This document shows, one piece after another, positions 4,001 through 59,591 of a DNA stretch of 64,000 nucleotides (its first letter is position 1; the number at the start of each line of letters is the position of its first letter). The stretch comes from Thermococcus litoralis DSM 5473 (GTDB taxonomy: Archaea; Methanobacteriota_B; Thermococci; Thermococcales; Thermococcaceae): NCBI RefSeq assembly GCF_000246985.2, contig NC_022084.1, forward strand, positions 1,286,817-1,350,816, given 5' to 3'. The notes under the pieces are model-generated. The model had not been told where the DNA came from, searched no databases, and was given only the letters and a program-made list of their open reading frames with translations. The translations under genes were made by a program, and so were the position numbers.

Positions 4001-4059
4001 TTACTATATAACAATTAGGTGTAAAAAAGTTCATAAGTCCAAATCCGGAGGTGAACTTA

Positions 4060-5366
4060 ATGGGTATAATAAAAAAGTACACTAGTATACCTCTGCCATA
4101 TAGAGTTGGTGTTGCATTTTTATTGGGTGTCGCATTTGGGCTGAGTCTGTGGTACTACGACATGGCAAACGGAAGCAATCTCGGCGAAAGGGTAGCAACA
4201 TACATCTCACCTTTTGGTGCAGTGCTCGTAAGAATGCTCAAAATGGTCGTTATACCAATAGTGTTCTTCTCTCTCATAGTCGGATCTTCGGGATTATCGC
4301 CAAAAAAGCTGGGAAGGGTTGGTGCAAAAGTTCTCCTATGGTACATGCTCACATCATTTATAGCTGCAATGATAGGTGTCGGTATCGCAATGTTTGTGCA
4401 CCCCGGTCAAGGTGTAGCAGTTGACGTTGAAAACTTGGGAGTTCTATGGGAGAAGGAGGCCCCTCAATAACTCCCCCTTCAGGGCTGACGGATTTAATTC
4501 TTAAGATGTTCACAAATCCCTTTGAGGCATTGGCAAACGGCGAATTCCTCCCGATAATAGTCTTTGCCCTTCTGTTTGGTCTCGCGGCAAGAGTTCTTCT
4601 TGACCACACCCAAAATGAAACCGAAAGAAGACAGATTCAAATGGCACTTGACTTCGCCTCCGGCGCAAACTCGGTGATGTTCAAGATAGTTTCCTGGATT
4701 CTTGAGTACTTCCCAATCGGCGTGTTCTCATTAGCAGTTGTCAATTTTGGACTTTACGGCCCCTCAATAATTGGGCCTTACCTAAAGGCCGTTTTGGGAG
4801 TTATTTCAGGAATTGCTATAATGATATTTGTTGTATACTCCATCCTGCTTTCAGTCGTTCTCAAAGAGAACCCAATAGAGTTCTTTAAGAGGGCTAAAGA
4901 AGTTATGATAACATCATTTTTCACCAGAAGCAGTGCAGCCACACTTCCAGTCACAATTAAAACCGCAATAGAGTCTTTCAAGATAAAGAGGGAGCTTGCG
5001 GAGTTCTCTCTCCCAGTTGGTGCAACAATCAACATGAATGGAGTATGTATACACCTCCCGATGTGGGCCGTCTTTGCAGCAGATGTCTTTGGCATTGACC
5101 TCACAGTTAGCTCTTTGGCCATAGTTATAATAACCACCGTGCTGTCGGCAATAGGTGCGGGAGGAGTCCCTGGAGGAAGCCTAATGCTCCTCTTCATAGT
5201 GCTTGGAACCCTTGGCCTTGAGCCAAGCCAGATAGCAATAATAGTTGCCCTCGCTTTGGGAGTCAACCCACTCATAGATATGTTTGAGACAATGAACAAC
5301 GTTACCGGAGACCTCTGCTGTACTTATATTGTTGCCAGAAAAGAAGACATGATTGAGCAATCCTGA
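4060..5366 (+). pseudogene. Dicarboxylate/amino-acid:cation symporter (GltPh family), one frameshift
   Basis: Homologue of the Na+-coupled aspartate transporter GltPh. The first 137 residues carry TM1-3. The frame then ends at a TAA just after WEKEAPQ and resumes one base back, giving ITPPSGLTDLILKM and TNPFEALANGE, which align with the GltPh segment after TM3. The break is at a CCCC run (4460-4463); one more C would restore the frame. The second part carries the hairpin motif TRSSAATLP, the TM7 motif NMNG (NMDG is usual in the family) and NNVTGDL in TM8. ATG 4060 has GGAGGTGA before it. Either a sequencing error, a young pseudogene or a -1 recoding event is possible. Confidence 0.88.
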
Positions 5367-7723: not shown

Positions 7724-7782
7724 AGTAAATTTTTTAGAGTTCGGGATTAATTATCCAGTGCACGTATCTGGAGGTGTAGTAA

Positions 7783-8847
7783 GTGTGGAAGAAAACCCTC
7801 GCCTTCCTATTCGGGTTTTTGATTTTAGGAGTAACGTTCAGCGGTGCGAGCGCTACGGCAAGCTTTGTTAACGGAACGGTGAACGGCACCGTAACGGTTC
7901 CGTCAGAGTTAACTCTTGAGAAGAAGCCTGGAAACGAAGTTCAGCCGCAGTTCTGGGGGATTATTGGTCTTATATTACTTGATGCCGCAGCGAGCTAGTT
8001 CCTTGAGCATTACGTTTCTCCAGAAGTTGCAGCAGTCTACGATGCAGTCACAATACTCATTGACCCCGCTAAAATCGCAGAGAAACTGGGAATCAAGGGG
8101 GCAAAACTCGGAATTAAGGTCATTAGCCGCAATAAGGTGCTGATCGGTCTCTTCGAGGACAGCAAAGTCGTTAAGGAAATCACGTACGCTTCCAAGGATC
8201 TCGCTGAATGGGTAAGTAACAAGCTTGGAAAAGACTACATAGGGAAGATTGTTGAAAAATACGTTGTCAAGAGCGGAGGATTAAAGAAGGGCTATGACTT
8301 CGATGAGGTGGCAAAAACCCTAAAGAGAATATACGAATTGGGTATAACTAACGGTAACGCCAGAAGATTCATCGTTGACAAAGGCTGGGACGTTAGGAAA
8401 CTGGAGAAAGTGCTCGAAGACGTGAAGAGCGTCAGAGGAGGAGACGATTTAATCAGGAGGATCAACGCTGATCTCGGAAATGAGAGGGCAAGAACTCTTG
8501 GGCCGCTTTACGAGGCAGAGGTCGTGAACCACCTCAAGAGAAGTGGGTGGAAGGTGGAGGAAGTTGAGAAGGACGTAGTAACGTCTCTTGGAAATACTGA
8601 AATTGACATCATTGCCAAGAAAGGGTTGGAGACTGTGTTGATAGAGTGCAAGAGAAGCTTTGGAGGAGTAAAGCCTAGCCAGATATTAGCTCAGGCTGAG
8701 TATGCTAAGAGCAAGAACATCAGGAAAATCTACGTGTACTACTCGAGGGATGCTTACAATCCAAGAGTAATGAGTGCTATACGAGAAGCAAAGTCTAAGT
8801 ATGGGGTGGATATAGAGTTAGTCCAGTTGAGTTCGGAATTCAACTGA
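7783..8847 (+). pseudogene. Secreted PD-(D/E)XK nuclease, putative polymorphic toxin; in-frame TAG
   Basis: One reading frame runs from GTG 7783 to 8847 with a single TAG at 7996-7998. The first 71 codons encode a signal peptide (basic MWKK, hydrophobic core, ...SGASA) and a short exported segment. After the TAG the same frame continues without a start: FLEHYVSPEVAAVYDAV, an amphipathic middle region, then a restriction-endonuclease-like domain. That domain has EAEVVNHLKRSGW, the catalytic EIDIIAK and VLIECKR. Mrr/RecB-like nucleases use such D...ExK sites to cut DNA. The layout of export signal, linker and C-terminal nuclease resembles polymorphic toxins. It heads the 13-kb island and is followed by a putative immunity gene. 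The internal GTG at 8137 could give a cytosolic fragment. Confidence 0.8.
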
Positions 8848-8882: not shown

Positions 8883-9674
8883 ATGGGGGACTGTTATGAT
8901 ATAGTTGCGGTGTTTGAAAGGCCTTGGAAGGAGATTGTTGATGAATTAGATAGGCAGTTTGGGCTCGTTAAAGACACGGGGCATGGTCCGGACGAGTGGT
9001 ATGAACATTATGACACAAAAGGATTTAAATTAGTGTTCAAAGGGAGGACTAAGGATATAATCCTGAAGACTACTAAACCTGAGTGGTATGCAGGCGTTGG
9101 CTTCTGGATTGAAGTGTTCTCAAAGAGTGAAATAACAATAGTTGACTTTGGAACCTGTACAAGTAAATTTTGGCATGTCTCAAGCAAGGAGCTATTGAGG
9201 TTTTTTGAGAAGTTAACGAACGCCGGAGCAGTGCTAATTATAGGTTACGTGTACGGGAGTGAAAGGTTTGAGGATATTTTTGGAGAGTGGGACCAGTTCC
9301 TCGTCTATGAGTGGCTGGAGAAAGCCCTAAAGCATGGAAAGCTTGAAATCCTTCCTTCTGGAGTTACCATCGTGAAGGACAACTTGCTCCCCATCGAGGA
9401 CGGCCTCTACGAACTTGCTGAAATACCTTGGATGGAAGAAAAGGAGTACGTTCTCATAAAAAGCCTGAACGGGCATAAAATCCTCGTCTCGATATGGAGG
9501 AGTGATTTGACTTATGAAGACTCTTACCGGGAACTCCTTGAGGATAAGACTTGGTTCAGCCGGGACATAACCACGTTGATCTTCGGGAGAATTGGGAAAA
9601 GAGTTAAGGACGAGTTCCTCGTCAAAAGGGCTGAAGAGTATTTTAAAGCACAGGTGGATGAGGATGAGCGTTGA
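8883..9674 (+). CDS. Hypothetical protein, putative immunity protein to the upstream nuclease
   Basis: A 263-residue soluble protein with no signal peptide, no membrane segment and no family I recognise. It is acidic, as immunity proteins often are, and has two similar-sized halves (about 1-130 and 140-260). The ATG at 8883 follows GGGGGGTGA; an in-frame start 18 bases earlier overlaps that site. It lies 35 bp after the nuclease toxin gene, where polymorphic toxin loci place the cognate immunity gene. It does not show the GTF/YDP motif of the later island proteins. The immunity function is inferred from position only. Confidence 0.55.
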   Translation: MGDCYDIVAVFERPWKEIVDELDRQFGLVKDTGHGPDEWYEHYDTKGFKLVFKGRTKDIILKTTKPEWYAGVGFWIEVFSKSEITIVDFGTCTSKFWHVSSKELLRFFEKLTNAGAVLIIGYVYGSERFEDIFGEWDQFLVYEWLEKALKHGKLEILPSGVTIVKDNLLPIEDGLYELAEIPWMEEKEYVLIKSLNGHKILVSIWRSDLTYEDSYRELLEDKTWFSRDITTLIFGRIGKRVKDEFLVKRAEEYFKAQVDEDER

Positions 9675-9689
9675 TCATTTAGGTTTAAG

Positions 9690-9880
9690 AAGAAGTACGA
9701 CATGGCTTTAAGCTTTATGGCGACTTGGGTGATGTTGATATAATTACCAGAAAATGATGAAATAGTTTTACATTGAGTGCAAGAGAGGAAGTAGCGAATA
9801 TCTGACGAACAATTGTTGAAAGAGGCGGAATACGACAACATGATGCGTGTAAGAAAACTAATTGTGTACTACTCTCGTGA
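9690..9880 (+). pseudogene. Remnant of a second PD-(D/E)XK nuclease toxin domain
   Basis: Pieced over two or three frames, this stretch encodes GDLGDVDIITRK, FYIECKRGSSEYLT and VRKLIVYYSRDP. These correspond to EIDIIAKK, VLIECKR and IRKIYVYYSRDA in the intact nuclease at 8.5-8.8 kb. The DVD and ECK catalytic positions are still readable, but frameshifts and a stop break it. The IS982-like element starts right after the YYSRD codons, so the last part of the domain is missing. It shows that a second, diverged nuclease toxin module once stood here. Confidence 0.75.
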
Positions 9881-10784
9881 CCCTAGTTCCCACCACCTGT
9901 GAAGTTGTACAATCTGTCCAGATTCACGGCCAGAATCGCCCCTAAAATCCTGACAGTTAACCCCCTCAAACTAACACTCCTGCTCAGCCTCAGAAGAAAC
10001 TCAGAAAACCTAAAAAACAAAGTCTCAACCCTCCTGCGAAAGTCAGACACGTACTTGTAAAACTTCTTCTCTTCCAGATTACTAATCTGATTCCCCCGCT
10101 TTACTGGCGTGTAAACAACGCCAAACCTCAGAAATTCCTCCTCGAGCCCCCTGCTAACATACCCCTTATCCAAAAACAGAAAACAGCCAGAAAACTCCTC
10201 AACAATCACCCAGAACTTTTCCCTGACAACACTCACATCATGCTTATTCGCCGGATCAACAGACAGTAAAGCCAGCAAATTTCCATCAGAGTAACAGGTC
10301 AGCTTGTACCCATAGTAAAACTTTTTTTAGAGGGAAAAAACTCAACTGCAGGCTTTTCAGAGATGACTTCTAAAGAACCCTCCTTATCCTTCCTGTTTTT
10401 TCTGGCCAACTCCTTGGTCTGAATGGGCTTTGAGTCCAGTATTCTAACGTATTCTCTGGCGTGTTTTTTGAATAATTCTTCCTGTGCTAGGAGTAGGAGT
10501 TTTTCGTGCCTGTTCAAGCGTTCTGTTAGCTTCATTTCTTCGATTAGGACTCTGTAAGCGTGCTTGTAAACTCCGTTAAAGTGCAAGTGTGCTAGTATTG
10601 CGAAGGTTATCAGGTCGTAGAGGCTGATTATTTCCCTGTGAGTGTTTTTTGGGTAGTGTTTGCTGACTATCGGGTAGATTTCGGATTTTATGATCAGGAT
10701 TTTCCTCTGAAAGCTCAATACAACCACCAATCAACCAAAAAACTTAAGTGCTTATAACTCCAACGATCTGATGGGAACTAGGGT
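9881..10784. mobile_element. IS982-like insertion sequence (about 0.9 kb)
   Basis: The element is bounded by terminal inverted repeats. The left end begins CCCTAGTTCCCA (9881-9892) and the right end is its inverse, TGGGAACTAGGG (10772-10783). Its length and transposase fit the IS982 family known from Pyrococcus. Five bases on either side (CGTGA and TTTAA) do not match, so no target-site duplication is evident. This suggests a later deletion or recombination at one end. It cuts off a toxin remnant on the left. Confidence 0.8.
9883..10730 (-). pseudogene. IS982-family transposase, split by a -1 frameshift
   Basis: DDE transposase in two pieces on the minus strand. The first (10730-10299) holds the N-terminal helical part and ARILDSKPIQT-like residues (YVRILDSKPIQTKEL) that resemble the first catalytic Asp region. 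The second, open from about 10320 to 9883, carries YYGYKLTCYSDGN, SVDPANKHDVS and LFLDKGYVSRGLEEEF. The two are joined by a -1 shift at a run of seven A (10322-10328 on the opposite strand). The element may be dead, may rely on slippage at the A7 run, or the sequence may have one extra or missing base there. Confidence 0.8.
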
Positions 10785-10818
10785 TTAATTTTAATTTTTC
10801 TTTAGTTTATCAGGGGTG

Positions 10819-11556
10819 ATGAACTTGATAACTTGGTACTTTGATGTTGAGTATTTGAGAAAAAATCTGGAAACTGAGGAAATAACAACTCAAGGTAAAA
10901 CTCCCATGCAGCTTTCAACAATATTGAAGTTGTTTCGTTTGCCCGCAGGGAGGTACTTATTAAAAATATTGGGAGAAGAAGTGCTTGCAGATGATTCCGG
11001 TGAAGCGATATACTTTACCAGTGTTCCCCAAGATGCATTCCTCGTGAGCATCTATCTCCGGGGAGCTTTAGAGAAATTTAACCAAGAGATTGCTACAAAG
11101 ACCTGGTTTGTTGAATTTTTACAAAAATACGTTTATCCTCCTGAAATCAGAAGAATTCCAGATCCACGGCTAAGAGAGGTTCCTATAGAAGAACTAAGAC
11201 GAGAATACTTGTTAGAGTGTCCAGATGTTAAAGGATACGTTTTTGACGTTACATTCGGAAAGATTTTGAGCCCGGTGGTGTTTAAACTCAAAGGAGAAAA
11301 AGTGTTTATATGCTCGGAACTTTACTTTGCGGATAAAGGCAACATCCTTAACCCCAAAAGGGTAGTGATAGAGGGTGATGCTGGCTCATTGTCGAGAGCT
11401 TTCCTGAAAATGGGAGAAGAGACTTTAAAGAGTCTAGTTGAACTAGGTGAACTGCTACCTCCGGGAGCGTGGAAAGAGCCATTGGCGGAATACATTGAAG
11501 TTCTTAACACTTTCAGAAAGTTTAGTCTTAGTCTGGTAAGAGGCAAGCGTACTTAA
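10819..11556 (+). CDS. Hypothetical island protein, putative immunity protein
   Basis: A 245-residue soluble protein with no recognised family. Near residues 140-160 it has TFGKILSPVVFKLKGEKVFI. This resembles the SFGTYEPVSPVVFRKEGN segment of the 14.7-kb protein, so it may be a distant member of the island's shared family. The C-terminal 60 residues are helical. ATG 10819 follows AGGGGTG. It sits between the IS element and a broken RNase-type toxin whose N-terminal remains overlap its last codons. The role as an antitoxin is inferred from context. Confidence 0.5.
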   Translation: MNLITWYFDVEYLRKNLETEEITTQGKTPMQLSTILKLFRLPAGRYLLKILGEEVLADDSGEAIYFTSVPQDAFLVSIYLRGALEKFNQEIATKTWFVEFLQKYVYPPEIRRIPDPRLREVPIEELRREYLLECPDVKGYVFDVTFGKILSPVVFKLKGEKVFICSELYFADKGNILNPKRVVIEGDAGSLSRAFLKMGEETLKSLVELGELLPPGAWKEPLAEYIEVLNTFRKFSLSLVRGKRT

Positions 11557-11970
11557 ACGGCTGGGATGCCAACGATGCTAAAAAGCTTGCAGAGGATTTT
11601 GACGAGGGGGTACAGGGGTTTCAGGGCACACTTCAATGGGGCAAACCTTGATTGTGGAGTATTCGAAGAAGGAGATGTTATCATTGATGCAAAAGGGGCA
11701 AAACATATTATTTTCAACCACCTCATGAAAAAAGCCTGGAAAAGATCAGTTCACTCACATTTCCACCGTGGATCTTTTAAACGAAATGGGCAAGGTTATA
11801 GAAAACCCAGACAAAATTGAATGCGGAGACATTGTCAGTGGAAACAGAGAATAGTACTTGTTAAATATTCCCCAAAGCTGGGAAAGAAAGTGGTGGTAGT
11901 GATTGAGATGGGAGATGTACCGGATAGTTACTTCGTTTCCAGCACCGAAATACTGAGGGTGGTGGAGTGA
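11541..11970 (+). pseudogene. Broken BECR-like RNase toxin module
   Basis: Read over three frames, the stretch gives NGWDANDAKKLAEDFDEG, then EEGDVIIDAKGAKHIIFNHL, then KVIENPDKIECGDIVSGN, then KKVVVVIEMGDVPDSYFVSS. The second piece aligns with EGEVIIDDEGATHIIERHI of the intact toxin at 13.6 kb, and the order of pieces follows that protein. At least three shifts separate the pieces. The last frame ends with TGA at 11968-11970, overlapping the ATG of the next gene, as coupled toxin-immunity pairs do. I infer a former secreted or cassette RNase toxin whose immunity gene (11970-12860) survives. Confidence 0.65.
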
Positions 11971-12860
11971 TGCACATCTCTTTTTATTTTATAAGCCAGG
12001 ATAGAGGATTTCCAGTACTCATAACTGAGAAGAGTTCAATTTTTTTGACCAGAGAGCCAGTTCCTTTCGATGAGTTTAAAAGACGAATAAACGCCCTTGT
12101 CTTCAGCGAGGCTGATTTCACGGACCTCTTCGAAGTTAGGATATTCAAAAAAGATCCGTATATTGAGATAAAACTTTCGAATGGCACGAAACTTAGAACA
12201 ACTATTGAAAATTTTCTTGAAGGTGTGAACAAATCAGTTGAAAACCTTTCTAGAGTTATATCCAGGGAGCCTGTACACTTGGAAAGCTTAGTCCTTAAGA
12301 TAATCTCACCCCCCTCATGTGAAAGCAGGAAAAGTTGCAGAAATGAGTATGAACTTGAGATCTATGGGGAAAGTCTTTACATAATAAGCTCTACAGTTTA
12401 CTTGGACGAATACCTTAGCGAATTGATCGAGCTTAGAGACTTCATAAAAAGTGGGAAGCTTCCGAGAGAGTCATGGAGAATTATTCATGACCTCGATGGA
12501 AAAATCAGAGAAGTTCTTAGTATGGATACCAGCAAACCCGAAAACCGTGGCATGCTTCTTGAGTTCACCAGACTTAAGGGGTTATCAAAAGGAGCATCTC
12601 CACCACTTATCCGTTTCACTTTTGCAATGTATGATCCCTTTGAGGTGATTTACGTGGCAGAATCTGAAAGTGGCAGCATAATGCTAATATTCATCCTCTA
12701 TGCTCAGATGGCAGTTGTTGTTAAAAAGGAATCTCTGCTCAAGTCAATTGAGAGAGCAATTCAAGATGCACGTAACGAACTTGAGAAACTTGAGTACAGA
12801 TCAGAAAGGCAAATAGACTCAAGAGGTGAAGATTTTTTTAAGAAAGGGGCAGGAGAGTGA
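11970..12860 (+). CDS. Island immunity-like protein, family A (paralogue of 19825-20688)
   Basis: A 296-residue soluble protein clearly paralogous to the one at 19825-20688. Both carry DRGFPVL near the N-end, EW/SWR-I-D-DG-I in the middle, and ASPPLIRFTF-MYDPFEVIY versus APPFVRFTLSTYDPFEVLY near residue 220. The YDPFEV segment is a variant of the G-[ST]-[FY]-[DE]-P motif shared across the island. The C-terminus is a long charged helix. The ATG overlaps the stop of the broken RNase toxin (TGATG), so it is probably the cognate immunity gene. No catalytic residues are evident. Confidence 0.65.
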   Translation: MHISFYFISQDRGFPVLITEKSSIFLTREPVPFDEFKRRINALVFSEADFTDLFEVRIFKKDPYIEIKLSNGTKLRTTIENFLEGVNKSVENLSRVISREPVHLESLVLKIISPPSCESRKSCRNEYELEIYGESLYIISSTVYLDEYLSELIELRDFIKSGKLPRESWRIIHDLDGKIREVLSMDTSKPENRGMLLEFTRLKGLSKGASPPLIRFTFAMYDPFEVIYVAESESGSIMLIFILYAQMAVVVKKESLLKSIERAIQDARNELEKLEYRSERQIDSRGEDFFKKGAGE

Positions 12861-12864
12861 GCTC

Positions 12865-12912
12865 ATGTCCTTCTCTATTACCCTAAGGTTAGGCTTGGCT
12901 TTACCTCTTTAA
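12865..12912 (+). pseudogene. Scar of a double-domain immunity gene with a large internal deletion
   Basis: A 15-codon ORF reading MSFSITLRLGLALPL. The first four codons and GAGCTCATG context match the start of the gene at 17975 (MSFSFIFFG). The next codons match that gene's internal SITLRLGTYEP at about 18232-18255, also at DNA level (ATTACCCTAAGGTT). It is therefore a start fused to an internal piece by deletion. It is not expected to be functional. Confidence 0.6.
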
Positions 12913-12949
12913 TTTTTCGTATCGAGCAGTAAATCATGGGGGTGTCGTT

Positions 12950-13591
12950 ATGACAAAGGCGAGAGTTAAGCTCTGGTATACTCTTCCAGATACCAGCTAC
13001 CTGAGAAAAGCTGTTTTATCCTCACTTTTAGATGCCGTTGAAACTTATAGCGAGTCCGTAAAAGAAGGGGACGAAGAAGATTTTAGCAAGCTCCTGGGAG
13101 ACATTGTTTTAAGAGGATTTGAGTATGAGGTTAGATACGGCCTGAAAATTGAGGATGTCGAGCTTATAGCCCCTGCTATTGGGAATTTACTTCACTTCCT
13201 CGAAGACGTTGCCCTATCCTTAGTGTATGTCAAAAAGGGAGAGAACGGCATTAAAAGTCTCTCGGCTTTTCCCTTGGATGTTAATCCGTTAAAAACAGTT
13301 GACATAGAGAGATCAATGTTTAGCAATGATTCTCTCAAATTGCTCTTTGGGACATTTGAGCCAAAAAGAACGTATTTCCTCCACAAGCAAGGAAACGTTC
13401 TCGAAATAAAATCATCTGATGATAATACAACAATCCATATAAATGCCGATGAATATGTGGACAACATTAAAAATGATCTCGTGAGTGGAATCTACAATGT
13501 TGAAGAAATCTTGAAAATGCATACCTTGCTAGGGGTCTTACGCACCAGGATTCAGTGGTTAAAGGTAATGACGAGATACGCCCTAAAGTGA
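12950..13591 (+). CDS. Island immunity-like protein, family B (intact paralogue of 16585-17242)
   Basis: A 213-residue soluble protein. It shares KLWYTLP at the N-terminus, ETYSESV-EGDEEDF, ELIAPAIGNL and LKLLFGTFEPKRTYFL with the frameshifted copy at 16.6 kb. GTFEP is the island-wide motif, followed by beta-rich and then helical sequence. The start ATG lies after GGGGGTGTCGTT. It ends eight bases before the orphan RNase-type toxin domain. In this island an immunity gene usually follows its toxin, so its cognate toxin may be lost. Function is inferred from family membership. Confidence 0.6.
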   Translation: MTKARVKLWYTLPDTSYLRKAVLSSLLDAVETYSESVKEGDEEDFSKLLGDIVLRGFEYEVRYGLKIEDVELIAPAIGNLLHFLEDVALSLVYVKKGENGIKSLSAFPLDVNPLKTVDIERSMFSNDSLKLLFGTFEPKRTYFLHKQGNVLEIKSSDDNTTIHINADEYVDNIKNDLVSGIYNVEEILKMHTLLGVLRTRIQWLKVMTRYALK

Positions 13592-13598
13592 AAAGTCA

Positions 13599-13925
13599 AT
13601 GCAAAAAGTTAGCTACTTCCCGGAAGGAGAGGTTATAATTGATGATGAAGGGGCGACACACATAATTGAAAGGCACATTAAAAAGGGGGTGTATGATTAT
13701 AAATCGAAATTTGAACAGATAACCGCCAAACAGCTTCTGCAGATGCTTGAAGAGACTATTAAAACAGGTGAGATAAACTGTCGCAGAAGTAATCCACCGA
13801 AGGAAGTAGTCCTTGAAAAGTATTATCCCGGGATAGGGGCCAAGAACCGGCTGAGAGTTGTCATAAGGAAAATATCCAATGGCTCATACAAGATAGTGAC
13901 AGCACACCCTGTGGATTGGGACTGA
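13599..13925 (+). CDS. Orphan BECR-like RNase toxin domain
   Basis: A 108-residue protein that looks like the C-terminal catalytic tip of a polymorphic toxin with no delivery part. It has EGEVIIDDEGATHIIERHIKK (H-x-I-x-x-R-H), a central helix, then RLRVVIRKISNG and SYKIVTAHPVDW. A His-containing first block and a final V-TA-[YH]-P strand are typical of EndoU/colicin-type (BECR fold) RNases; assignment rests on this pattern, not a search. The ATG at 13599 has only a weak ribosome binding site. The gene that follows (13979) would be its immunity gene. Remnants of related domains occur at 11.6, 15.2 and 16.4 kb. Confidence 0.6.
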   Translation: MQKVSYFPEGEVIIDDEGATHIIERHIKKGVYDYKSKFEQITAKQLLQMLEETIKTGEINCRRSNPPKEVVLEKYYPGIGAKNRLRVVIRKISNGSYKIVTAHPVDWD

Positions 13926-13978
13926 GTACAAGGGACCACCTTTTAATTTTTTAACTACATAGCATTGGGGTGATACAA

Positions 13979-14644
13979 ATGGTGAATTTCAAAATCACGT
14001 TTAAACTTGAAGAACCTTTTGGCCCCTTGGAAAAAAGGGCGAGAAGAGCAGTAACGGAAGGAAAAGAACACGGCTATTCAGACGAATCGATAATAGAGAC
14101 AGTTCTCAGCGAGTACGATGTCAGCATCAGTTGCAGAGTAGAGGAAGTGTTTAACGCGACTGTCCACCTCAACGAATTTCTTTATGAGCTTTTTAGATTT
14201 GCATTTTATGCCGTAACAGGCGAAGTGCCAGAAGACGTGAAGTCATATGGATGGAGCTTCAAGAGGCTCGCAGAACTCCCGGACTGGCTTGATGAGGAAG
14301 TTAGGGTCCTGAGAGGACTATTGGGGGAGGAGTTTAACGAACTAACGTCCAGTCCATTTTTAAGGTCCTTCCTCGGAAGCTACGATCCCATTTTAATCGT
14401 ATACGGGTTCAGGAAGGGCGAATACATGTATCTCGTGAACGTGGACTACAGAAAGGTCTGCAGGGTATCAACCAGTGAGTTCTTGAGGAGAGTAATGAAT
14501 GTCGCAGAGGAGGCTATCACGGAATTGGAGTCCTGCACTCGCGTATTTGATGGGAATGGGATTAGAAAGTACAGAGAGATGATCGACGGGTACAGGGAAC
14601 TAACTAAAAGATTGAAGAATTTGCTGGGAATTGGAAATTATTAA
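13979..14644 (+). CDS. Putative immunity protein to the RNase-type toxin
   Basis: A 221-residue soluble protein with no known family. It carries FLGSYDPILIVYGFRKGEY near residue 135, the island's G-[ST]-[FY]-[DE]-P motif. KRLAELPDW resembles IGELPDW in the broken gene at 17236-17939, with which it shares overall order. ATG 13979 has GGGGTGAT before it; an earlier in-frame GTG (13970) lies inside that site. It directly follows the orphan toxin by 53 bp, so it is the best candidate for the matching antitoxin. Confidence 0.6.
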   Translation: MVNFKITFKLEEPFGPLEKRARRAVTEGKEHGYSDESIIETVLSEYDVSISCRVEEVFNATVHLNEFLYELFRFAFYAVTGEVPEDVKSYGWSFKRLAELPDWLDEEVRVLRGLLGEEFNELTSSPFLRSFLGSYDPILIVYGFRKGEYMYLVNVDYRKVCRVSTSEFLRRVMNVAEEAITELESCTRVFDGNGIRKYREMIDGYRELTKRLKNLLGIGNY

Positions 14645-14720
14645 CGGGGAGAATAATGTATGGGTCCAAAATTCGCCTTGAATTTGTTGAGAAAAGTAGA
14701 AAAGCCCGGGGATGCCCTCA

Positions 14721-15224
14721 ATGCCAGTTAGATTTTCAGTTGATTCCCCTCTTGAAGAGTTGGAGGAATCAGGAGGATTTGGGGCTTGGATCACTATAGA
14801 GGTGAATGGAAAGCGGATTGTGTGGGCTGCCTGCTACATCCTGCAGGCAATCTCCGGAATTCTTGCCACAGTAACCCTCGCGGTTGCATCGTGTGATGGA
14901 ATCCCTTACGTGCTTGAAAAGTTTGGGGAGGACGAGATAAGGGTGATAAAGGGGAACTGCAGGGACGAGGAACTTAGGGTAAGTTTTGGCACCTACGAGC
15001 CCGTCTCCCCAGTGGTGTTCAGGAAGGAGGGTAACTACCTGCTCATCGAGGCCTTCGAGAACCAGCAATTGGTTGGCAGGGAGAGAGTCGAAGTCAGAGA
15101 ATACGTTAAAGCTGCCCTTGAATTCCTTGATGAGTACCTGAAGGGAACGAAGGATGAGGCTTACGTGACTGGGCTTGAGAGGGTTAAAGAGCTCGTGAAA
15201 AAGAAATTTCATTTGACCCTCTGA
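14721..15224 (+). CDS. Island immunity-like protein, family C, single domain
   Basis: About 167 residues, corresponding to one half of the double proteins at 15330 and 17975. Shared elements are an N-terminal strand pattern with VNGKRI, the cysteine helix ATVTLAVASCDGIPYV, and SFGTYEPVSPVVFRKEGNY followed by a C-terminal helix. The start is uncertain: ATG 14712 and ATG 14721 are both in frame and neither has a clear ribosome binding site. The 70 bp before it give a different frame (MYGSKIRLEFVEKSR), so the original N-terminus may have been replaced. A toxin remnant follows. Confidence 0.55.
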   Translation: MPVRFSVDSPLEELEESGGFGAWITIEVNGKRIVWAACYILQAISGILATVTLAVASCDGIPYVLEKFGEDEIRVIKGNCRDEELRVSFGTYEPVSPVVFRKEGNYLLIEAFENQQLVGRERVEVREYVKAALEFLDEYLKGTKDEAYVTGLERVKELVKKKFHLTL

Positions 15225-15325
15225 GTGCTCTCCAGCGTCTGGGGAGAAGGAGCGGGTTTAAATATAATCTCGAAAAAGAACCGTACAGGATAATAACGGC
15301 CTACCTAAAGTGGTTAGGGAGGTAG
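15225..15325 (+). pseudogene. 3' remnant of a BECR-like toxin gene
   Basis: The frame directly after the preceding stop reads ...GFKYNLEKEPYRIITAYLKW and ends with TAG at 15323-15325. YRIITAY matches the last conserved strand of the orphan toxin (YKIVTAH). No catalytic part remains. It ends five bases before the ATG of the next immunity-like gene, the expected toxin-then-immunity order. Confidence 0.55.
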
Positions 15326-15329
15326 ACAA

Positions 15330-16418
15330 ATGTCGTTCTCCATTTTATTTTTTCCAAAGGATGAGGAAGGGCTGAAGGCTCACTTCAAATACGATATAAC
15401 CTTGAACTTCGAGATAAACGGCGAAGTCATTAAAACGCTATGCAGTGGACGAGAGGCAGTTTTCAGTGCGATTTACCTTCTGGCATTCTGTTCAGCTTCC
15501 TGCGAAGGCATAAAAGAGCTGGAAATGCGCAGTGGTCTATGCACAACTTTCTTGAGCGACGTAGAGCAATGTCGGAGTGCTAAGGGCAAGCTTGTCACCG
15601 ACTTCGGTTCAATAGAACCATCGGTCGTCTTTGCCTTTACCAAAAAGTCTGACAAAGTCAGAATCGAGGTTCTCGTAGATTATGAAATTGAGTACTACAA
15701 AACATTTGAGGTGTCACTGAGTGAGGTGGCAAAGTCGGTATTGGAGTTTTTGGAGTCCGTGGTGAGCATTGTCGGAGATGACAAGCTGAGAAGAAGCTTG
15801 GAAATTGCCAAGGACATTGCGACAAGAGAAGGTCTGATTGCCCCATCCGCAGAGGAAGGCTTCAAAATAACTGTTGATTGGGTGGGGGAGTTTAAATGCG
15901 GGTCCAAACGAATGCCCCTGCTGTATTCAGGGGTGAGAGCCAGAAGGGTGTTGTTTAGCGGCATAGTTGATCCGCTAAGCTTTGCATCCGAGCTCATTAA
16001 CCTCGCAATTCTCACAGAGGAGAGCCGTGAAGAGACCAGTACTCCGGTACCATTGGCGTACAGGGATTGGTTTAGAGAAGCACTCGCCTTAATCGGAACT
16101 GTAGGCAAGAAAAAACCTGCCATGATTTTAACACTGGGGAGCTTTGATCCGCGGCCAATTTTCGTTTTCAGGGACTCCGGCGAACTCCTCTTGGTCAGTC
16201 CCTCACGCAAAACTGTAGCAAGAGTACCCGCCAAAGACATCGTCCCGGCCGTTAGCTCCGCGGTTTTGGATGTGGTCGGCTGGTTGAAGAAGTGGGACGA
16301 CACGGAGTATCCAGGATACGTCTCGAAAGAAAAGGCGATATCAATGATAACTGAGGAGCTTGAGAGGATAAAACAGAAAAAACCGGCTGGGGGAAGAGAA
16401 GAGACACATCCCCTGTAA
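15330..16418 (+). CDS. Island immunity-like protein, family C, two fused domains
   Basis: A 362-residue protein made of two related halves. Half one has SASCEGIKELEMRSGLC and TDFGSIEPSVVFAF (about residues 52-110). Half two begins near residue 183 with FKITVDWVGEFKCGSKRM and has LTLGSFDPRPIFVFRDSGE (about 273-291). It is collinear with the protein at 17975-18967. The start has GGGAGGTAGACAAATG. It follows a toxin 3' remnant and precedes another, so it is probably the immunity protein of the lost upstream toxin. No enzymatic motif is seen. Confidence 0.6.
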   Translation: MSFSILFFPKDEEGLKAHFKYDITLNFEINGEVIKTLCSGREAVFSAIYLLAFCSASCEGIKELEMRSGLCTTFLSDVEQCRSAKGKLVTDFGSIEPSVVFAFTKKSDKVRIEVLVDYEIEYYKTFEVSLSEVAKSVLEFLESVVSIVGDDKLRRSLEIAKDIATREGLIAPSAEEGFKITVDWVGEFKCGSKRMPLLYSGVRARRVLFSGIVDPLSFASELINLAILTEESREETSTPVPLAYRDWFREALALIGTVGKKKPAMILTLGSFDPRPIFVFRDSGELLLVSPSRKTVARVPAKDIVPAVSSAVLDVVGWLKKWDDTEYPGYVSKEKAISMITEELERIKQKKPAGGREETHPL

Positions 16419-16437
16419 GGGCAAAATAGCACTGGAG

Positions 16438-16533
16438 GTGGACACAGAAATTGGCAGAGTAAGGGGGATACTACAGAGGATAGGATACAAAAGCTACAAG
16501 GTTCTTACGGCATACCTGTTAAAATCCCACTGA
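16438..16533 (+). pseudogene. Second 3' remnant of a BECR-like toxin gene
   Basis: The frame reads RVRGILQRIGYKSYKVLTAY and ends with TGA at 16531-16533. YKVLTAY again matches the final strand of the orphan toxin (YKIVTAH). Only about 30 codons remain. The next immunity-like gene starts about 50 bp later. Confidence 0.55.
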
Positions 16534-16584
16534 GTTGATGCCCACAATTTTTTATATGCTGCATTAACTTATAAGGTGGTGCAC

Positions 16585-17242
16585 ATGACAAGGGTTCATC
16601 TGTGGTACACACTCCCAACTAAAGACTACCTGAAGGGAGCAGTCGTTTCGTCGCTCTCAGACACCGTGGAAACATACACTGAATCCGTTGAAGAAGACGA
16701 CGAAGAGGACTTCAACGAGCTCCTCAAAGGCATTATCTCAAGGGCATTTGAATACGGCGTTAAGTACGGGTTGGCGGTGAACGGCAGAGAGCTGATAGCA
16801 CCCGCCTGTGGGAACTTAATTGACTTTTTTGAGGACGTGGCACTCTCGATTGTTTACGCAGGGGAGGAAAGGATTCAATAATCGAACTCATGAGTCTCCC
16901 GGCGGAGGTAAACCCCCTCAGGAACAACCCTGTCACCAGAAACATGTCCATGGAAGAGGTGTTTTTTCCTGAAGGGCCCCTTAAACTCTTCTTCGGCACC
17001 TTTGACCCCATAAAGTTCGTCCTGTACCGCAAACATAGCAAAATCCTTGAAATTGAGTCGCCGGACAACGGAGTAACCGTCCGGGTGGGGGTTGAAGAGT
17101 ACGTAGAGGGCATTAGGGAAGACCTCATAAGGGGAGTACATGAGGTGGAAGAAGCCCTAAAAACGTTCACCCCCTGCGGGCTTTATATCCAAAAATACAA
17201 TGGGTGAAGGTGATAGTAAGGTATGCGCTCAGCACATGGTGA
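16585..17242 (+). pseudogene. Family B immunity-like gene broken by two frameshifts
   Basis: Paralogue of 12950-13591. The first frame gives VHLWYTLPTKDYLKGAV, ETYTESVEEDDEEDF and ELIAPACGNL, then ends at 16881. The second resumes one base back with IIELMSLPAEVNPLR and LKLFFGTFDPIKFVLY. A further shift near 17195 is needed to read KIQWVKVIVRYALSTW, which matches IQWLKVMTRYALK of the intact copy. The first break is in the purine run GGGGAGGAAAGG. ATG 16585 follows AAGGTGGTG. The natural stop at 17240-17242 overlaps the next start. Confidence 0.7.
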
Positions 17243-17939
17243 GAAGCATGACCCTGCACACCACTAACCCGGGGGTTTACTGGTACTGGTATGCCATAAA
17301 AACGCTGGATTCAACCGCTAAAAGCGTGGACGAGCTTTTGGAGTGGATGGAGGTACTTTTTGACTTCGATAATGTTCTCAAGCACCACCTGCCGGAGCTC
17401 AGAGGTCACTGGATTGAGAACCACTCACTCCTAACTGGGGTTCCTAGGAACATCAATGTTCTCTCCACCACCGTAAGCTTCCCCCGCTTTCTTGGAAACT
17501 TCATAGCTGGAATTTTATACGCGCTCGAAAAGGAGAACGAGTTCAGAAAGTTCATTGGAGGACCGGGAGTTAAACGCCTGCAGGGGACGGCAGGATGGTT
17601 CCCGAGGACGTGCTGAGGCCCATTGGAGAGCTCCCCGACTGGGCAAGGAGAACGCAAGCAAAGGTCAAACTCTACGTGGACATGGACTTTGGAGCCTTTG
17701 ACCCCACCCTTCATGCAGTACTTTTAAGGAGTGGAAACTCTCTGATTTGGATTTTCGACAATGGCAGGGTCTACAAGATGAGGGGAAGAGAGTTCACGAG
17801 GTTTGCTTTGGACATTCTCATTGCAGGGAGGGACTCAATAAATGTCCTAATAGATCGTATTGATATTCGTTCATCCCTGGCCAAGGCCACAATAAGGCAC
17901 ATTGACAGGTCGATTGGAATGCTCTCGTTCGATAGGTAG
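17236..17939 (+). pseudogene. Immunity-like gene with one frameshift (relative of 13979-14644)
   Basis: The first part reads NPGVYWYWYAIKTLD, VLFDFDNVLKHHLPEL and FLGNFIAGILYALEKE, and stops at 17616. The second part is open through VPEDVLRPIGELPDW, DFGAFDPTLHAVLLRSGN and EFTRFALDILIAG to 17939. VPEDV and ELPDW also occur in the protein at 13979, which joins the parts into one gene of about 234 codons. GAFDP is the island motif. The start ATG overlaps the stop of the upstream gene (ATGGTGA), as in coupled genes. Confidence 0.65.
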
Positions 17940-17962
17940 CTCGGATGACATAGGGAAAAGAA

Positions 17963-17994
17963 GGAGGTGAGCTCATGTCTTTCTCCTTTATCTT
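17963..17994 (+). repeat. 32-bp perfect direct repeat, copy 1
   Basis: From GGAGGTGAGCTCATG through the first codons of the family C gene at 17975, these 32 bases are identical to 20681-20712. Similarity continues at a lower level for about 60 bp. A shorter version (GTGAGCTCATGTCCTTCTC) lies at 12857-12875. The repeat spans ribosome binding site and start codon, so recombination here swaps whole coding regions behind a working start. Confidence 0.8.
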
Positions 17995-18967
17995 TTTTGG
18001 CTTTGAGGAGGCTCTTAGGGGTGAGGTGCCTGCGGATACTTTAACCATTGCCATTAAAAACGGGGATGAGATTATACCCTTGGGCGACTGCTTTACCAGA
18101 GACGCTGTTGGTGACGTTATTGATGCCATTGCATTCGCTGTTAACTCCTGCGAGGGCGTTAAGGAACTGTACATTCGGAGCGGGAAGTGTGATGTTTTGT
18201 TATTTCCTGGTAGATATTGTCAAGATAACAGTATTACCCTAAGGTTGGGCACGTACGAACCAATATCCTATATCCTCTTTAAAATCAATGGCGACCTCAT
18301 CCAGCTTAAAATACGCCGGGAGGATAGAAAAGATGTGACGACCGTGGAGGTTCCTCGCGAGAAGTTCGTTCCATCCGCCATAAGCTTTGTCAGCTCCTTC
18401 CTCGTGAAGTTTCCTGATGAGGACTTAATGAGGGAGCTTAGGATTGTGGAGGAAATGGCGAGTAGGAAGGGCTTTCTCCCCACTGAGAAAAAGTTTGAAA
18501 TTAAGGTTGAGTGGCTCGGGGAGGTTAAATGCAGGAACAAGAAGTTTTCCCTGGTTTACGCAATCATAAGTCATGGCAAGGAAATATTCAGCGGGCTCGT
18601 TGAACCGGTGGCATTTGCCGGCTCGCTGTTGGAAGTCCTCAGGAGTATTCGCGGTCTGGAGAACAGGTGCCAGGTAGAGCTAACTCTCTACGAAGACGTG
18701 ATAAGAAGAGCATCCTCCCTGGTTGGGGAGGGATCTTTGGAGTACTTTGTGCCCTGCTTCGGGAACGAATGGCCGGGCCCGTTGTTAGTCTTTAAAAAGA
18801 ACCGTGAACTGGCCTTTGTGAACGTTAAAACCGGCTTGATTGTGGGGGTCGGTATGGAAGAGGTGGAGGGTGAGGTCGTGAGGGCTGTGAAGGAAGTTGT
18901 TGAGAAACTCGAAGAACGGGGAGAAGCGCACTGGCTCAGAAAAGAGCTTGAAGAGATCTTGAGATAG
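17975..18967 (+). CDS. Island immunity-like protein, family C, two fused domains
   Basis: A 330-residue double-domain relative of the protein at 15330-16418. Half one has NSCEGVKELYIRSGKC and LRLGTYEPISYILFKINGD. Half two begins FEIKVEWLGEVKCRNKKF and has a degenerate motif, VPCFGNEWPGPLLVF, where the usual G-[ST]-[FY]-[DE]-P is changed. The C-terminus is a charged helix. The start follows GGAGGTGAGCTC, part of a repeat found at three places in the island. No toxin remnant is seen directly before it. Confidence 0.6.
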   Translation: MSFSFIFFGFEEALRGEVPADTLTIAIKNGDEIIPLGDCFTRDAVGDVIDAIAFAVNSCEGVKELYIRSGKCDVLLFPGRYCQDNSITLRLGTYEPISYILFKINGDLIQLKIRREDRKDVTTVEVPREKFVPSAISFVSSFLVKFPDEDLMRELRIVEEMASRKGFLPTEKKFEIKVEWLGEVKCRNKKFSLVYAIISHGKEIFSGLVEPVAFAGSLLEVLRSIRGLENRCQVELTLYEDVIRRASSLVGEGSLEYFVPCFGNEWPGPLLVFKKNRELAFVNVKTGLIVGVGMEEVEGEVVRAVKEVVEKLEERGEAHWLRKELEEILR

Positions 18968-19013
18968 TAGGATAAACTCCAGCGGTGAGGCACTGGAGTT
19001 GAGGCTGGTGATC

Positions 19014-19210
19014 ATGTGCCCGGAAATTTACTGGTATTGGTGCATCCCAGAGAGGGGAAGAGGTATGGATGAACTCTTGAAGCATATGAAGGCGCTTTTC
19101 GACTTCGATGGTGTTTTAAAACGTTGAGCTTGTTGACGGTCGCTTGTCCCTGGGCAGAGCAACTGTTAGGCACGTTAAGAGGTTCGTCTCGCATTTGGGG
19201 GTCTACGGGG
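19014..19210 (+). pseudogene. Immunity-like gene remnant with internal deletion
   Basis: The 5' piece (19014-19127) reads EIYWYWCIPERGRGMDELL and ALFDFDGVLK, matching GVYWYWYAIK and VLFDFDNVLK at the start of 17236-17939. Directly after its stop another frame reads RLSLGRATVRHVKRFVSHLG, matching SSLAKATIRHIDRSIGML at that gene's end. About 190 central codons are missing. It is thus a deletion derivative of a second copy of that gene. Confidence 0.65.
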
Positions 19211-19218
19211 GAATAGCT

Positions 19219-19758
19219 GTGTGTGAGTTCAGGTGGAAAAGGCTTGAGCTGAGGAGGGGTCCACTCTGGAGGGTCATTGTAGTCCCACCGAGGCACTACA
19301 GAATAAAACTTGGCCCGATTGAAATTTATTCCTCTGTTCACCCCCTGAGGTTGATATTGACTATTGAAAGCCTCGCCCAAGGAGCTAAGTACCTACTCTC
19401 CAATAATTTTGAGGACATGGAACTTGAAGACGAGCCCGACTATACAACCCTAATAAGCTCCTGTGGGACGTTCAATGGTTTCTTTCTGCTTTCGCTAGGT
19501 CTTCCAGAGGATTTTGGAGTGGTTCTTAAACGGGAGAATCACAGGGTAACCCTATGTTACCCAGATAATTTCGACATCCCCCTTCCCACTTACTCAGTGA
19601 AGAAATGGGAGGCCCCAGCGGAGGAACTGGGGGAGTGCATGAGAAAAGCCGCGATCGAAGGAATTGAAAATCTTTTCATCGAAATCACCAAAGCTCTGAG
19701 AGGCGAATACCTTGAGTGGGGGGAGAAGGTGCTCAAGATACTCAAAAAAGTGGAATAA
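19219..19758 (+). CDS. Hypothetical island protein, putative immunity protein
   Basis: About 179 residues, soluble, no known family. It contains LISSCGTFNGFFLLSLGLP near residue 75, a degenerate form of the island motif (GTFN), and a helical, charged C-terminus. I choose GTG 19219 with GGGGGAA upstream. The frame is open farther back, but that part encodes the 3' end of a different, deleted gene. It is followed by the family A gene. Function is inferred from context. Confidence 0.5.
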   Translation: MCEFRWKRLELRRGPLWRVIVVPPRHYRIKLGPIEIYSSVHPLRLILTIESLAQGAKYLLSNNFEDMELEDEPDYTTLISSCGTFNGFFLLSLGLPEDFGVVLKRENHRVTLCYPDNFDIPLPTYSVKKWEAPAEELGECMRKAAIEGIENLFIEITKALRGEYLEWGEKVLKILKKVE

Positions 19759-19824
19759 TAGTGGGTCGGGAGGTGGAGTATGCGAAAGATATGCTTATAA
19801 TCTTCAGGGAGATACTGACAGGAG

Positions 19825-20688
19825 GTGGTTTCAATCTTTGCTTTTTCATTCTTCCTACAGGAGGGAGATAGGGGATTTCCAGTGCTGGTGCTCGAAGAGG
19901 GGCCAGTTTTCATCAGTGAAGACCCAGTGACGCTGGATGAATTCATAAGCTCCCTAAAGGCACTCCACTCGATGGATGCTCTCCCGAAAAAGCTCTGGGA
20001 CCTGAAGATAATGGCTGAGGGTGGATGGGTTTACCTGACCCTTCGGCATGGTGGGGAAGTACAGCTCACCCGTGACAACTTCATCGAGGCAATCCGAACT
20101 TCCATCCAGAACCTGAAATCGGTTCTTAATAATAAACCCATGCGGATGGAGTGGCTCAGGTTCAAACTAAAGCCGCCTTCCCATGAAGTTCTTGAGATGT
20201 TCGGTGAACCTGAGGATATCATGGACGAGTACGAAGTTCAAGTTTACGGGAGCATGTACGTACTGGAGGCGTTTGTTAATCTCGAGGGGTACGTTGAGGA
20301 GCTTAAACTTCTCAAGGCGTTTGTGTCGGATGGCAAACTGCCTGCGGAGGAGTGGCGGGTAAAGTGGAACGTTGATGGTGAAATCAAGAGGCTGTCTTCC
20401 AAAGAGGCAAAAAAGCCGGAGGATAGGGGCCTTCTCCGCGAACTAGCAGGCCTTGAAAAGCTCTCAGCAGGAGCGGCTCCTCCTTTCGTTCGCTTTACCC
20501 TTTCAACCTATGACCCCTTTGAAGTTCTCTATGCGGCAGACTCTGGAAAGGGAGAATTTTTGCTGGCATTCGTCCTGTATTCCGGTATGGCAGTCAAAAT
20601 CCCAAAGAACGCTCTCCTGAGGGCCATCGATGAGGCCATCAAAGATGCAGAAAAGGAACTTAAAAGGGTAAAGCTATCTGGGAGGTGA
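19825..20688 (+). CDS. Island immunity-like protein, family A (paralogue of 11970-12860)
   Basis: A 287-residue protein homologous over its whole length to 11970-12860. Matching blocks are DRGFPVLVLEEGP, DEYEVQVYGSMYVLEAF, AEEWRVKWNVDGEI and PPFVRFTLSTYDPFEVLYA. The GTG start at 19825 lies inside GGAGGTG, so the true start is uncertain and the original ATG may have been lost. The peptide before it (VEYAKDMLIIFREILTGGG) may be another fragment. Base composition is more GC-rich than the 11970 copy. Confidence 0.6.
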   Translation: MVSIFAFSFFLQEGDRGFPVLVLEEGPVFISEDPVTLDEFISSLKALHSMDALPKKLWDLKIMAEGGWVYLTLRHGGEVQLTRDNFIEAIRTSIQNLKSVLNNKPMRMEWLRFKLKPPSHEVLEMFGEPEDIMDEYEVQVYGSMYVLEAFVNLEGYVEELKLLKAFVSDGKLPAEEWRVKWNVDGEIKRLSSKEAKKPEDRGLLRELAGLEKLSAGAAPPFVRFTLSTYDPFEVLYAADSGKGEFLLAFVLYSGMAVKIPKNALLRAIDEAIKDAEKELKRVKLSGR

Positions 20689-38736: not shown

Positions 38737-39297
<561 letters not shown>

Positions 39298-58094: not shown

Positions 58095-58842
58095 GGGGGG
58101 CTCGCTGATTCCCTACCTCACAGCCGGCGACCCGAGCGTCGAAAAGACCCTTGAGTTTTTACTAGCGGTCGAGGAGTTTGCTGGATTAATAGAGCTCGGA
58201 ATCCCCTTCAGCGACCCGATGGCGGACGGGAAGACGATCCAGGAGTCCCACTACCGCGCCCTGAGAAACGGCTTCAAACTCGAAGACACATTCAGGATCC
58301 TCCGCGAGTTCAGGAGGCACTCCTCAACTCCCGTGATCCTGATGACCTACTACAACCCGGTTTTCAGGACGGGTGTTAGAAAGTTCCTCGGAGAGGCTAA
58401 GGCCAGCGGGGCCGACGGGATACTCGTGGTGGACCTCCCCGTGAGCCACGCGGGGGAATTCCTCGACATCGCGAGTGAGGAGGGAATAAAGACAGTCTTT
58501 TTAGCGGCTCCAAACACCCCCGATGAAAGGCTCAGGGAGATAGATAAAGCCTCTACCGGCTTCGTCTACCTTATCTCCCTATATGGAACCACTGGAGCAC
58601 GCGACAGACTTCCAGAGACGGCTTTTGAGTTCGTGAGGCGCGCCAGAAAGATATGCAACAACAAGCTGGCGGTCGGCTTCGGTGTTTCGAGGAGGGAGCA
58701 GGTGGAGGAGCTCCTCAGGGCTGGGGCGGACGGGGTTGTGGTTGGAAGCGCACTGATAGAGCTCATATCCCGCAGTGAGAACCCAGTGGAGGAGCTGAGG
58801 AAAAAGGTAGCGGAGCTCTCGGGCTACTCTAAAGCTTTGTAG
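58087..58842 (+). CDS. trpA: Tryptophan synthase alpha chain
   Basis: A 251-residue TIM barrel that splits indole-glycerol phosphate. The catalytic Glu is in [15 protein letters not shown] (about residues 36-50), and the catalytic Asp in GILVVDLPV. The phosphate site is GFGVSRREQ and GVVVGSALI. It is the last gene of the trp operon. Its 3' end runs into the convergent tyrA gene. Confidence 0.95.
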
Positions 58843-59591
58843 AACCTTTCATAGGCCGCTTCTATTTCTTCCCATTCCAGTTTCCCTGAGCCTCTCCGGG
58901 TCCGGTGGGTTCTTCCTGAGGAAATCGAGGAACTCCTCTATCTGCTTCCTGGACATGCTGAGTACTTCCCTTATGAAATCGGGAGAATCGTGGAGCACAG
59001 CCTTTCCGTAGGTCTCCAGGAAGGCCCAGGAAGTTCCACCGAACTCCCCCAGTCCGAGCTCCCTGGAGAGCGAGAGGTAGCTTAATCCGATGAAGTAGGG
59101 GACGCCTATGACGAAGCCCATGAGCCTGTCGTGGGTCTTCCAGTCGAGAAAGGACACGTTCCCCCGATGGAGCGTATAAAGTCAGCGACCTCCTCCGCAT
59201 CCTCTTCCCTCCCAGGGATGGGGACCACTATGAACCTCTTCCCCTCGATGGTCTTCGCTCCGGGCCCGAACATGGGGTGAACGCTCGCAGCTCTTGTTTC
59301 CTCGTCAAAGCCCGCGTAGGCTTCAATAACCAGGGACTTGAAAGTGGCTATGTCGAAGACGATCTTTTTCCCGCCGTGCTCCCTTGATATCTCCGCGAGC
59401 TTTTTCAGCCTCTCTGGAGTTGATCCGATGGATGAAGCCACAATTATCACGTCCGACTCCAGGTAGAGCTCCTCCAGCGATCCAACGTCGCTACGCCCGT
59501 GCTCGGAGTAGAAGATCACCTCGAACCTTCCGCCGAGACACCTCTCGAAGAGCCTTCCCATCCTTCCGTAGCCCGCGATTCCAATGCGCAT
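58824..59591 (-). pseudogene. tyrA: Prephenate dehydrogenase TyrA-like, two frameshifts
   Basis: NAD(P)-dependent enzyme of Tyr synthesis. The first part has GIAGYGRMGRLFERC, VIIVASSIGSTPERL and ASVHPMFGPGAKTIEG. At a G5 run (59161-59165) one G is missing. The frame then resumes as VSFLDWKTHDRLMGFVIGVP. A further shift near 58880-58890 is needed to read [17 protein letters not shown], ending with TAG at 58824 inside the trpA 3' end. Without it the ORF stops at 58849. The start ATG lies inside the 3' part of the upstream aminotransferase frame (76-bp overlap). The enzyme is expected to be needed, so sequence errors are a real possibility. Confidence 0.82.

What the first reader, a model, noticed from the sequence alone, without database searches (positions are those of the whole stretch)
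7996..7998. Single in-frame TAG splits the secreted nuclease
The frame from GTG 7783 (signal peptide) to 8847 (nuclease) is interrupted only by one TAG. The 46 codons after it, before any start codon, are clearly coding and continue the chain. A start at GTG 8137 would give a cytosolic nuclease without export signal. It may be a silenced toxin (immunity array without active toxin), a sequencing error or readthrough. Silencing of the effector while immunity is kept is an expected stage in toxin-locus decay.
Basis: seen in the sequence. Interest (0 to 1): 0.7.

Follow-up and report, generated by a model that had tools for sequence, protein, structure and literature searches.

The report
Silenced archaeal toxin, immunity gene kept
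A secreted DNA-cutting toxin gene in a heat-loving archaeon carries one premature stop codon, while the gene that protects the cell from that toxin, next door, is intact; relatives carry whole copies and differently broken copies, so this looks like an ordinary, recent loss of a weapon while the shield is kept.

Summary
In detail: the frame 7783-8847 is open except for TAG 7996-7998 (codon 72), and the sequence after it is coding. Intact full-length relatives exist in other Thermococcaceae, with a sense codon in that column. The gene is a modular toxin: signal-peptide head, middle domain, and a PD-(D/E)XK nuclease tip with its catalytic motif complete. The next gene (8883-9674) is intact and is the predicted immunity protein. 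The window copy is a mosaic: its head matches one relative, its tip and immunity gene are 97-100% identical to another. Tip and immunity co-vary across loci and the head does not, as in polymorphic toxin systems. No other head copy exists in this genome, and two relic tips in the window are broken. At the same chromosomal site, two congeners carry different toxins broken in other ways (insertion sequence; frameshift). Readthrough is unlikely: stop position not conserved, no CUA-anticodon tRNA found, no PylS above cut-off. Internal restart is unlikely: GTG 8137 has no ribosome-binding site. A sequencing error is not excluded, because the assembly has other point lesions and ambiguous bases. Best reading: a recently inactivated polymorphic toxin with immunity retained; a known kind of event in an uncurated archaeal family.

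The parts
7762..7782 (+). Ribosome-binding site region (GGAGGTG) of the toxin gene
   Evidence: anti-SD duplex -13.2 kcal/mol for the 18 bases upstream of the start
7783..7998 (+). Toxin gene, part before the stop: signal-peptide-like N-terminus and start of the head domain, 71 codons plus TAG
   Evidence: head family aligned
7996..7998 (+). Premature TAG (codon 72); all 11 aligned relatives have a sense codon for a hydrophobic residue in this column
7999..8847 (+). Toxin gene, part after the stop: rest of the middle domain and the nuclease tip, 282 codons plus TGA
8380..8847 (+). C-terminal cassette of the toxin (PD-(D/E)XK nuclease tip), 97-100% nt identical to L008; the breakpoint with the head lies near codon 200
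   Evidence: UPF0102, Mrr_cat, Hjc matches; invariant YEAE, TEIDII, ECKR and Q in alignment A4; identity profile
8883..9674 (+). Predicted cognate immunity gene, 263 aa, intact, strong ribosome-binding site
   Evidence: homolog directly after the toxin tip in 13 of 14 nuclease-tip loci; co-varies with the tip; anti-SD duplex -14.8 kcal/mol
9690..9880 (+). Relic of a second nuclease tip, frameshifted and headless
   Evidence: three-frame translation with motif fragments DVDIITRK, IECKRGSS, QLLKEAEY in different frames; the same stretch follows the immunity gene in L008
9880..10785 (-). IS982-family insertion sequence, 906 bp, 16-bp inverted ends, two-ORF transposase; matches the description of ISTli1 of Thermococcus litoralis
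   Evidence: PMC7335449
10816..11556 (+). Predicted immunity gene of a displaced toxin; the same gene follows the toxin in G007
11544..11861 (+). Headless, frameshifted relic tip of the toxin that G004 carries at this site; uninterrupted counterpart of the IS insertion site in G004
   Evidence: 97.8% nt identity to G004; flank comparison
11967..20688 (+). Rest of the array: several intact predicted immunity genes in paralogous families, with frameshifts at 16576-17207 and 17200-17939 and a headless tip-like ORF at 13599-13925

Best explanation
The gene is the head-bearing toxin of a polymorphic toxin locus of Thermococcaceae. The intact form would be exported through its N-terminal signal and would deliver a C-terminal PD-(D/E)XK nuclease into competitor archaea, while the cell is protected by the immunity protein encoded directly downstream. 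In this strain a recent nonsense change at codon 72 truncates the product to a 71-residue exported peptide without nuclease. The immunity gene has its own strong ribosome-binding site and stays intact, so the strain is a non-producer that keeps immunity. Shown here: the frame, the single stop, intact and broken relatives, modular exchange of tip plus immunity, an intact immunity gene and absence of another head copy. Inferred: export, toxicity, delivery, neutralisation and loss of function.
For: The stop is unique and the downstream frame is conserved and under purifying selection. Seven copies with the same type of tip have no stop or frameshift and keep both start and tip. All 11 aligned copies have a sense codon for a hydrophobic residue in the stop column. 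A homolog of 8883-9674 directly follows the tip in 13 of 14 loci. Tip and immunity identities correlate (Mantel r 0.38, p 0.027), while head and tip do not (r 0.01). Head codons 1-200 resemble G028, whereas codons 201-354 and the immunity gene are 97-100% identical to L008. The head family has no second copy in the genome. Independent lesions occur elsewhere: stop codons in G028 and G030, frameshifts in G028, G030 and G007, an in-frame tip deletion in G031, and an IS in G004. No CUA anticodon among the tRNAs and no PylS above cut-off. TAG terminates conserved genes such as the ferritin-like gene ending at 39297 and the TrpA-like gene ending at 58842.
Against: No reads, so the stop may be an assembly error. 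The window has other single-base lesions, for example a frameshift in the gltP-like gene that is whole in G004, and three tRNA genes hold ambiguous bases. Toxicity and immunity are inferred from anatomy only. The excess of broken toxins over broken immunity genes is modest (6/14 against 1/14, Fisher p 0.08; 8/16 against 1/16 with G004 and G007, p 0.016).
Confidence: 0.68

Rival explanations
1. Assembly or sequencing error: the strain has a normal sense codon there and an active toxin.
For: Only one lesion in 354 codons and purifying selection on both sides. Other point lesions in the window, such as the gltP-like gene that is whole in a congener and frame breaks in the TyrA-like and AroK-like genes. 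Ambiguous bases in three tRNA genes of the assembly.
Against: The other lesions are indels, whereas this is a substitution in a non-homopolymer context. Relatives and congeners have genuinely different breaks in the same family, including an IS insertion that cannot be an error. The two relic tips in the window are also degraded.
Confidence: 0.25
2. Split gene: translation restarts at GTG 8137 and gives a 236-residue cytosolic nuclease held in check by the immunity protein, acting like an intracellular toxin-antitoxin pair.
For: The 236-codon frame contains the whole nuclease tip with its motif.
Against: No Shine-Dalgarno site: -3.2 kcal/mol against -13.2 for the toxin start and -14.8 for the immunity start, with a background median of -3.8. 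No related copy has a conserved split at this place.
Confidence: 0.04
3. The TAG is read through or recoded and full-length toxin is made at a low level.
For: The frame after the stop is conserved, as it would be for a recoded gene.
Against: No other copy has a stop at this codon; the other stops lie elsewhere. None of the 45 tRNA genes shows a CUA anticodon (one intron-bearing gene and three with an ambiguous base were read by eye) and no PylS passes the cut-off. TAG ends ordinary genes in the window.
Confidence: 0.02

Closest known systems
Polymorphic toxin systems (Zhang et al. 2012; predicted in archaea by Makarova et al. 2019, both known here only as cited in PMC8416519 and PMC6393860)
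   Same: N-terminal export module, exchangeable C-terminal tip, cognate immunity gene directly downstream, orphan tips and extra immunity genes, exchange of tip plus immunity between strains.
   Different: Head and immunity families here match no Pfam model, lack large repeats or a known delivery apparatus, and were found only in Thermococcaceae. Activity is untested.
Rhs and CDI loci with orphan tips (for example Salmonella rhs, PMC3967940)
   Same: Headless tips downstream of a main gene, each with an immunity gene; recombination between main gene and orphan.
   Different: In the window the main gene itself is stopped by a point change and the relic tips are frameshifted, so no working donor tip remains.
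VARTIG modules of Thermococcales (PMC8416519)
   Same: Hypervariable Thermococcales loci with recombining C-termini and co-directed small genes.
   Different: VARTIG proteins carry Ig domains and no nuclease; this family carries a nuclease tip and showed no Pfam Ig domain in its head.
UPF0102/YraN, Mrr and Hjc nucleases (PD-(D/E)XK)
   Same: Catalytic core and motif order.
   Different: Here the core is a toxin tip behind an exported head rather than a housekeeping or restriction enzyme.

Membership tests
Polymorphic toxin system | Exported N-terminal head shared by toxins with different C-terminal tips | tested here: met
   L073 (G084) has the same head and an unrelated tip, with a nuclease tip downstream; G004 and G007 share the first ~50 residues but have other middles and tips. 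The signal peptide was judged by eye.
Polymorphic toxin system | Immunity gene directly after the tip | tested here: met
   13 of 14 nuclease-tip loci have a 262-289 aa homolog directly downstream
Polymorphic toxin system | Tip and immunity exchanged as a unit independently of the head | tested here: met
   Identity profile and Mantel test
Polymorphic toxin system | Tip toxic, neutralised specifically by the neighbour | not testable with these tools
   Needs a bench assay
Polymorphic toxin system | Known delivery route | not testable with these tools
   No delivery apparatus looked for; only a signal-peptide-like N-terminus seen
PD-(D/E)XK nuclease | Catalytic E...D...ExK...Q motif and family match | tested here: met
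   UPF0102 above gathering score; motif invariant in A4. The AlphaFold model was too poor to add evidence (pLDDT 41.5).
Pseudogene by nonsense mutation | Intact homologs with a sense codon at the site | tested here: met
Pseudogene by nonsense mutation | Stop present in the organism and not an assembly error | not testable with these tools
   No reads and no second sequence of the strain
Recoded gene (pyrrolysine or suppressor) | tRNA-CUA, PylS, conserved stop position | tested here: not met
ISTli1 (IS982 family) | 905 bp, 15/16 inverted ends, two-CDS transposase | tested here: met
   906 bp, 16-nt ends at 94%, two ORFs (PMC7335449); sequence itself not compared with ISTli1

The most novel reading that the evidence does not exclude
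In Thermococcaceae this uncurated toxin family is inactivated again and again by independent lesions while the immunity genes are kept. The hcp-tusA site would then work mostly as a store of immunity against neighbours' toxins, refilled by exchange of whole tip-immunity cassettes.
Probability: 0.3. Interest if true: 0.55.

Novelty: new member of a known kind. Interest (0 to 1): 0.36.

Why it matters
Archaeal polymorphic toxins are predicted but, according to PMC8416519, had not been tested experimentally as of 2021. This family gives a compact case with intact, broken and mosaic copies in cultivable hyperthermophiles and a clear tip-immunity pairing. It would allow a direct test of whether losing the weapon and keeping the shield is favoured. 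The stop codon itself is ordinary.

Tried and rejected
Pyrrolysine or suppressor decoding: rejected. Restart at GTG 8137: no ribosome-binding site. Copies in viral contigs, plasmids or phages: none found. Structure prediction with a two-sequence alignment: poor, so no fold search was run. Immunity and head families against Pfam, and immunity against PDB and (window protein) PADLOC: no convincing match. The strain was first guessed to be T. barophilus Ch5 from genome size; rejected because that genome is 2,388,527 bp (PMC4714111).

Full report
Observation. The window frame from GTG 7783 to TGA 8847 holds exactly one stop, TAG at 7996-7998, codon 72. The next in-frame start is GTG 8137. The window lies in a single-contig genome of 2,215,172 bases, a Thermococcaceae by its relatives. 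An IS982-type element at 9880-10785 of 906 bp with 16-bp ends and a two-ORF transposase fits the published description of ISTli1 of Thermococcus litoralis (PMC7335449), so the strain is probably that species.

Homologs. The part after the stop finds full-length relatives in one MAG contig (L008) and in other Thermococcaceae. The head alignment finds 31 of 94 genomes of the family and none of the further genomes of the phylum searched. Fourteen copies with nuclease tip and long head were read in detail. Seven (L008, L062, L064, L066, L067, L068, L072) have no lesion seen. Six are broken: the window; G028 twice, by TGA and by frameshift; G030 twice, by TAG at codon 41 and by frameshift; and G031 by an in-frame deletion in the tip. 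L065 (G042) seems to lack a start codon at the expected place. In the column of the window's stop all 11 aligned relatives carry a sense codon for a hydrophobic residue. In a rough hand count (matches better than 1e-5, contig edges left out), about 16 of 44 head matches lie in interrupted or short frames.

Anatomy. The tip passes the Pfam gathering score for UPF0102 and weakly matches Mrr_cat and Hjc. Its YEAE, TEIDII, ECKR and Q residues are invariant or nearly so in seven copies, so the PD-(D/E)XK motif is complete in the window. The neighbour 8883-9674 has a strong ribosome-binding site, and a homolog directly follows the toxin in 13 of 14 loci. It matches no Pfam or PADLOC model and no convincing PDB chain.

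Modularity. By 25-codon windows, codons 1-200 of the window copy are closest to G028 over almost the whole stretch (79-100% nt) and distant from L008 after the first 50 codons. Codons 201-354 are 97-100% identical to L008 and 52-77% to G028 until the last four codons. The immunity protein is 99% identical to that of L008. Across 12 loci, tip and immunity identity correlate (Mantel r 0.38, p 0.027), while head and tip do not (r 0.01). G084 has the same head with an unrelated tip (L073). This is the pattern that defines polymorphic toxins.

The same chromosomal site in congeners. The locus lies between a hydroxylamine reductase gene and a TusA-like gene. In G011 the two flanks lie close together, with no toxin array between them. 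G004 carries another toxin cut by the same type of IS at its tip. G007 carries a third toxin broken by frameshift. The window keeps a headless, frameshifted remnant of the G004 tip at 11544-11861, including the uninterrupted counterpart of the IS site, and another nuclease-tip relic at 9690-9880. Three congeners thus show three toxins with three different lesions. In the window the predicted immunity genes at 8883-9674, 10816-11556 and several in 11967-20688 are open, while two at 16576-17207 and 17200-17939 are frameshifted. No other head copy is found in the window's genome.

Is the stop decoded? The 45 tRNA genes found show no CUA anticodon; the intron-bearing gene and three genes with an ambiguous anticodon base were read by eye. 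No PylS exceeds the family cut-off. TAG ends ordinary genes in the window. No relative has a stop at this codon. Readthrough is therefore unlikely. GTG 8137 has no ribosome-binding site (-3.2 kcal/mol against a background median of -3.8), so a cytosolic restart is unlikely too.

Is the stop real? This cannot be settled here. Codons 73-200 show 14 synonymous against 5 nonsynonymous changes relative to G028, so any inactivation is recent. The assembly has other point lesions: a gltP-like gene frameshifted in the window and whole in G004, and apparent frame breaks in TyrA-like and AroK-like genes, which were not compared with relatives. Three tRNA genes hold ambiguous bases. These keep the error hypothesis at about one in four. 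Against it, the other lesions are indels and the family is demonstrably broken in several independent ways.

Broken toxins against broken immunity genes: 6/14 against 1/14 (Fisher p 0.08), or 8/16 against 1/16 including G004 and G007 (p 0.016). These counts were chosen after seeing the data and the toxin gene is longer, so this is suggestive only.

Verdict. An ordinary inactivating nonsense change in a polymorphic toxin with its immunity kept, in a family not yet in the curated libraries searched. The original archaeal survey (Makarova et al. 2019) was not available, so I cannot say whether this family is listed there.

Noticed in passing
window 4051-5366: A dicarboxylate-symporter-like gene (gltP-like) is split by a single-base frameshift near 4430; the congener G004 has it whole (452 aa). 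Sequencing error or recent pseudogene.
   Followed up: partly
window 58842-59591 and 63172-63950, - strand: TyrA-like and AroK-like genes show apparent frame breaks with the frame continuing in another phase. Not compared with relatives.
   Followed up: no
G000:C1 825207-825279, 546233-546307, 648439-648523: Three tRNA genes contain ambiguous bases (N), a sign of base-level uncertainty in this assembly.
   Followed up: partly
window 9880-10785: ISTli1-like IS982 element with a two-ORF transposase; the same type of element sits in the toxin tip of congener G004.
   Followed up: yes
window 11967-20688: Long array of paralogous, uncharacterised predicted immunity genes (11967 and 19825 related; 15330 and 17975 related), with a headless tip-like ORF at 13599-13925.
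   Followed up: partly
L070 (G030) toxin, codon 41: A second species has a TAG in the same toxin family at a different place, just after the signal peptide, again with an intact immunity gene directly downstream.
   Followed up: partly
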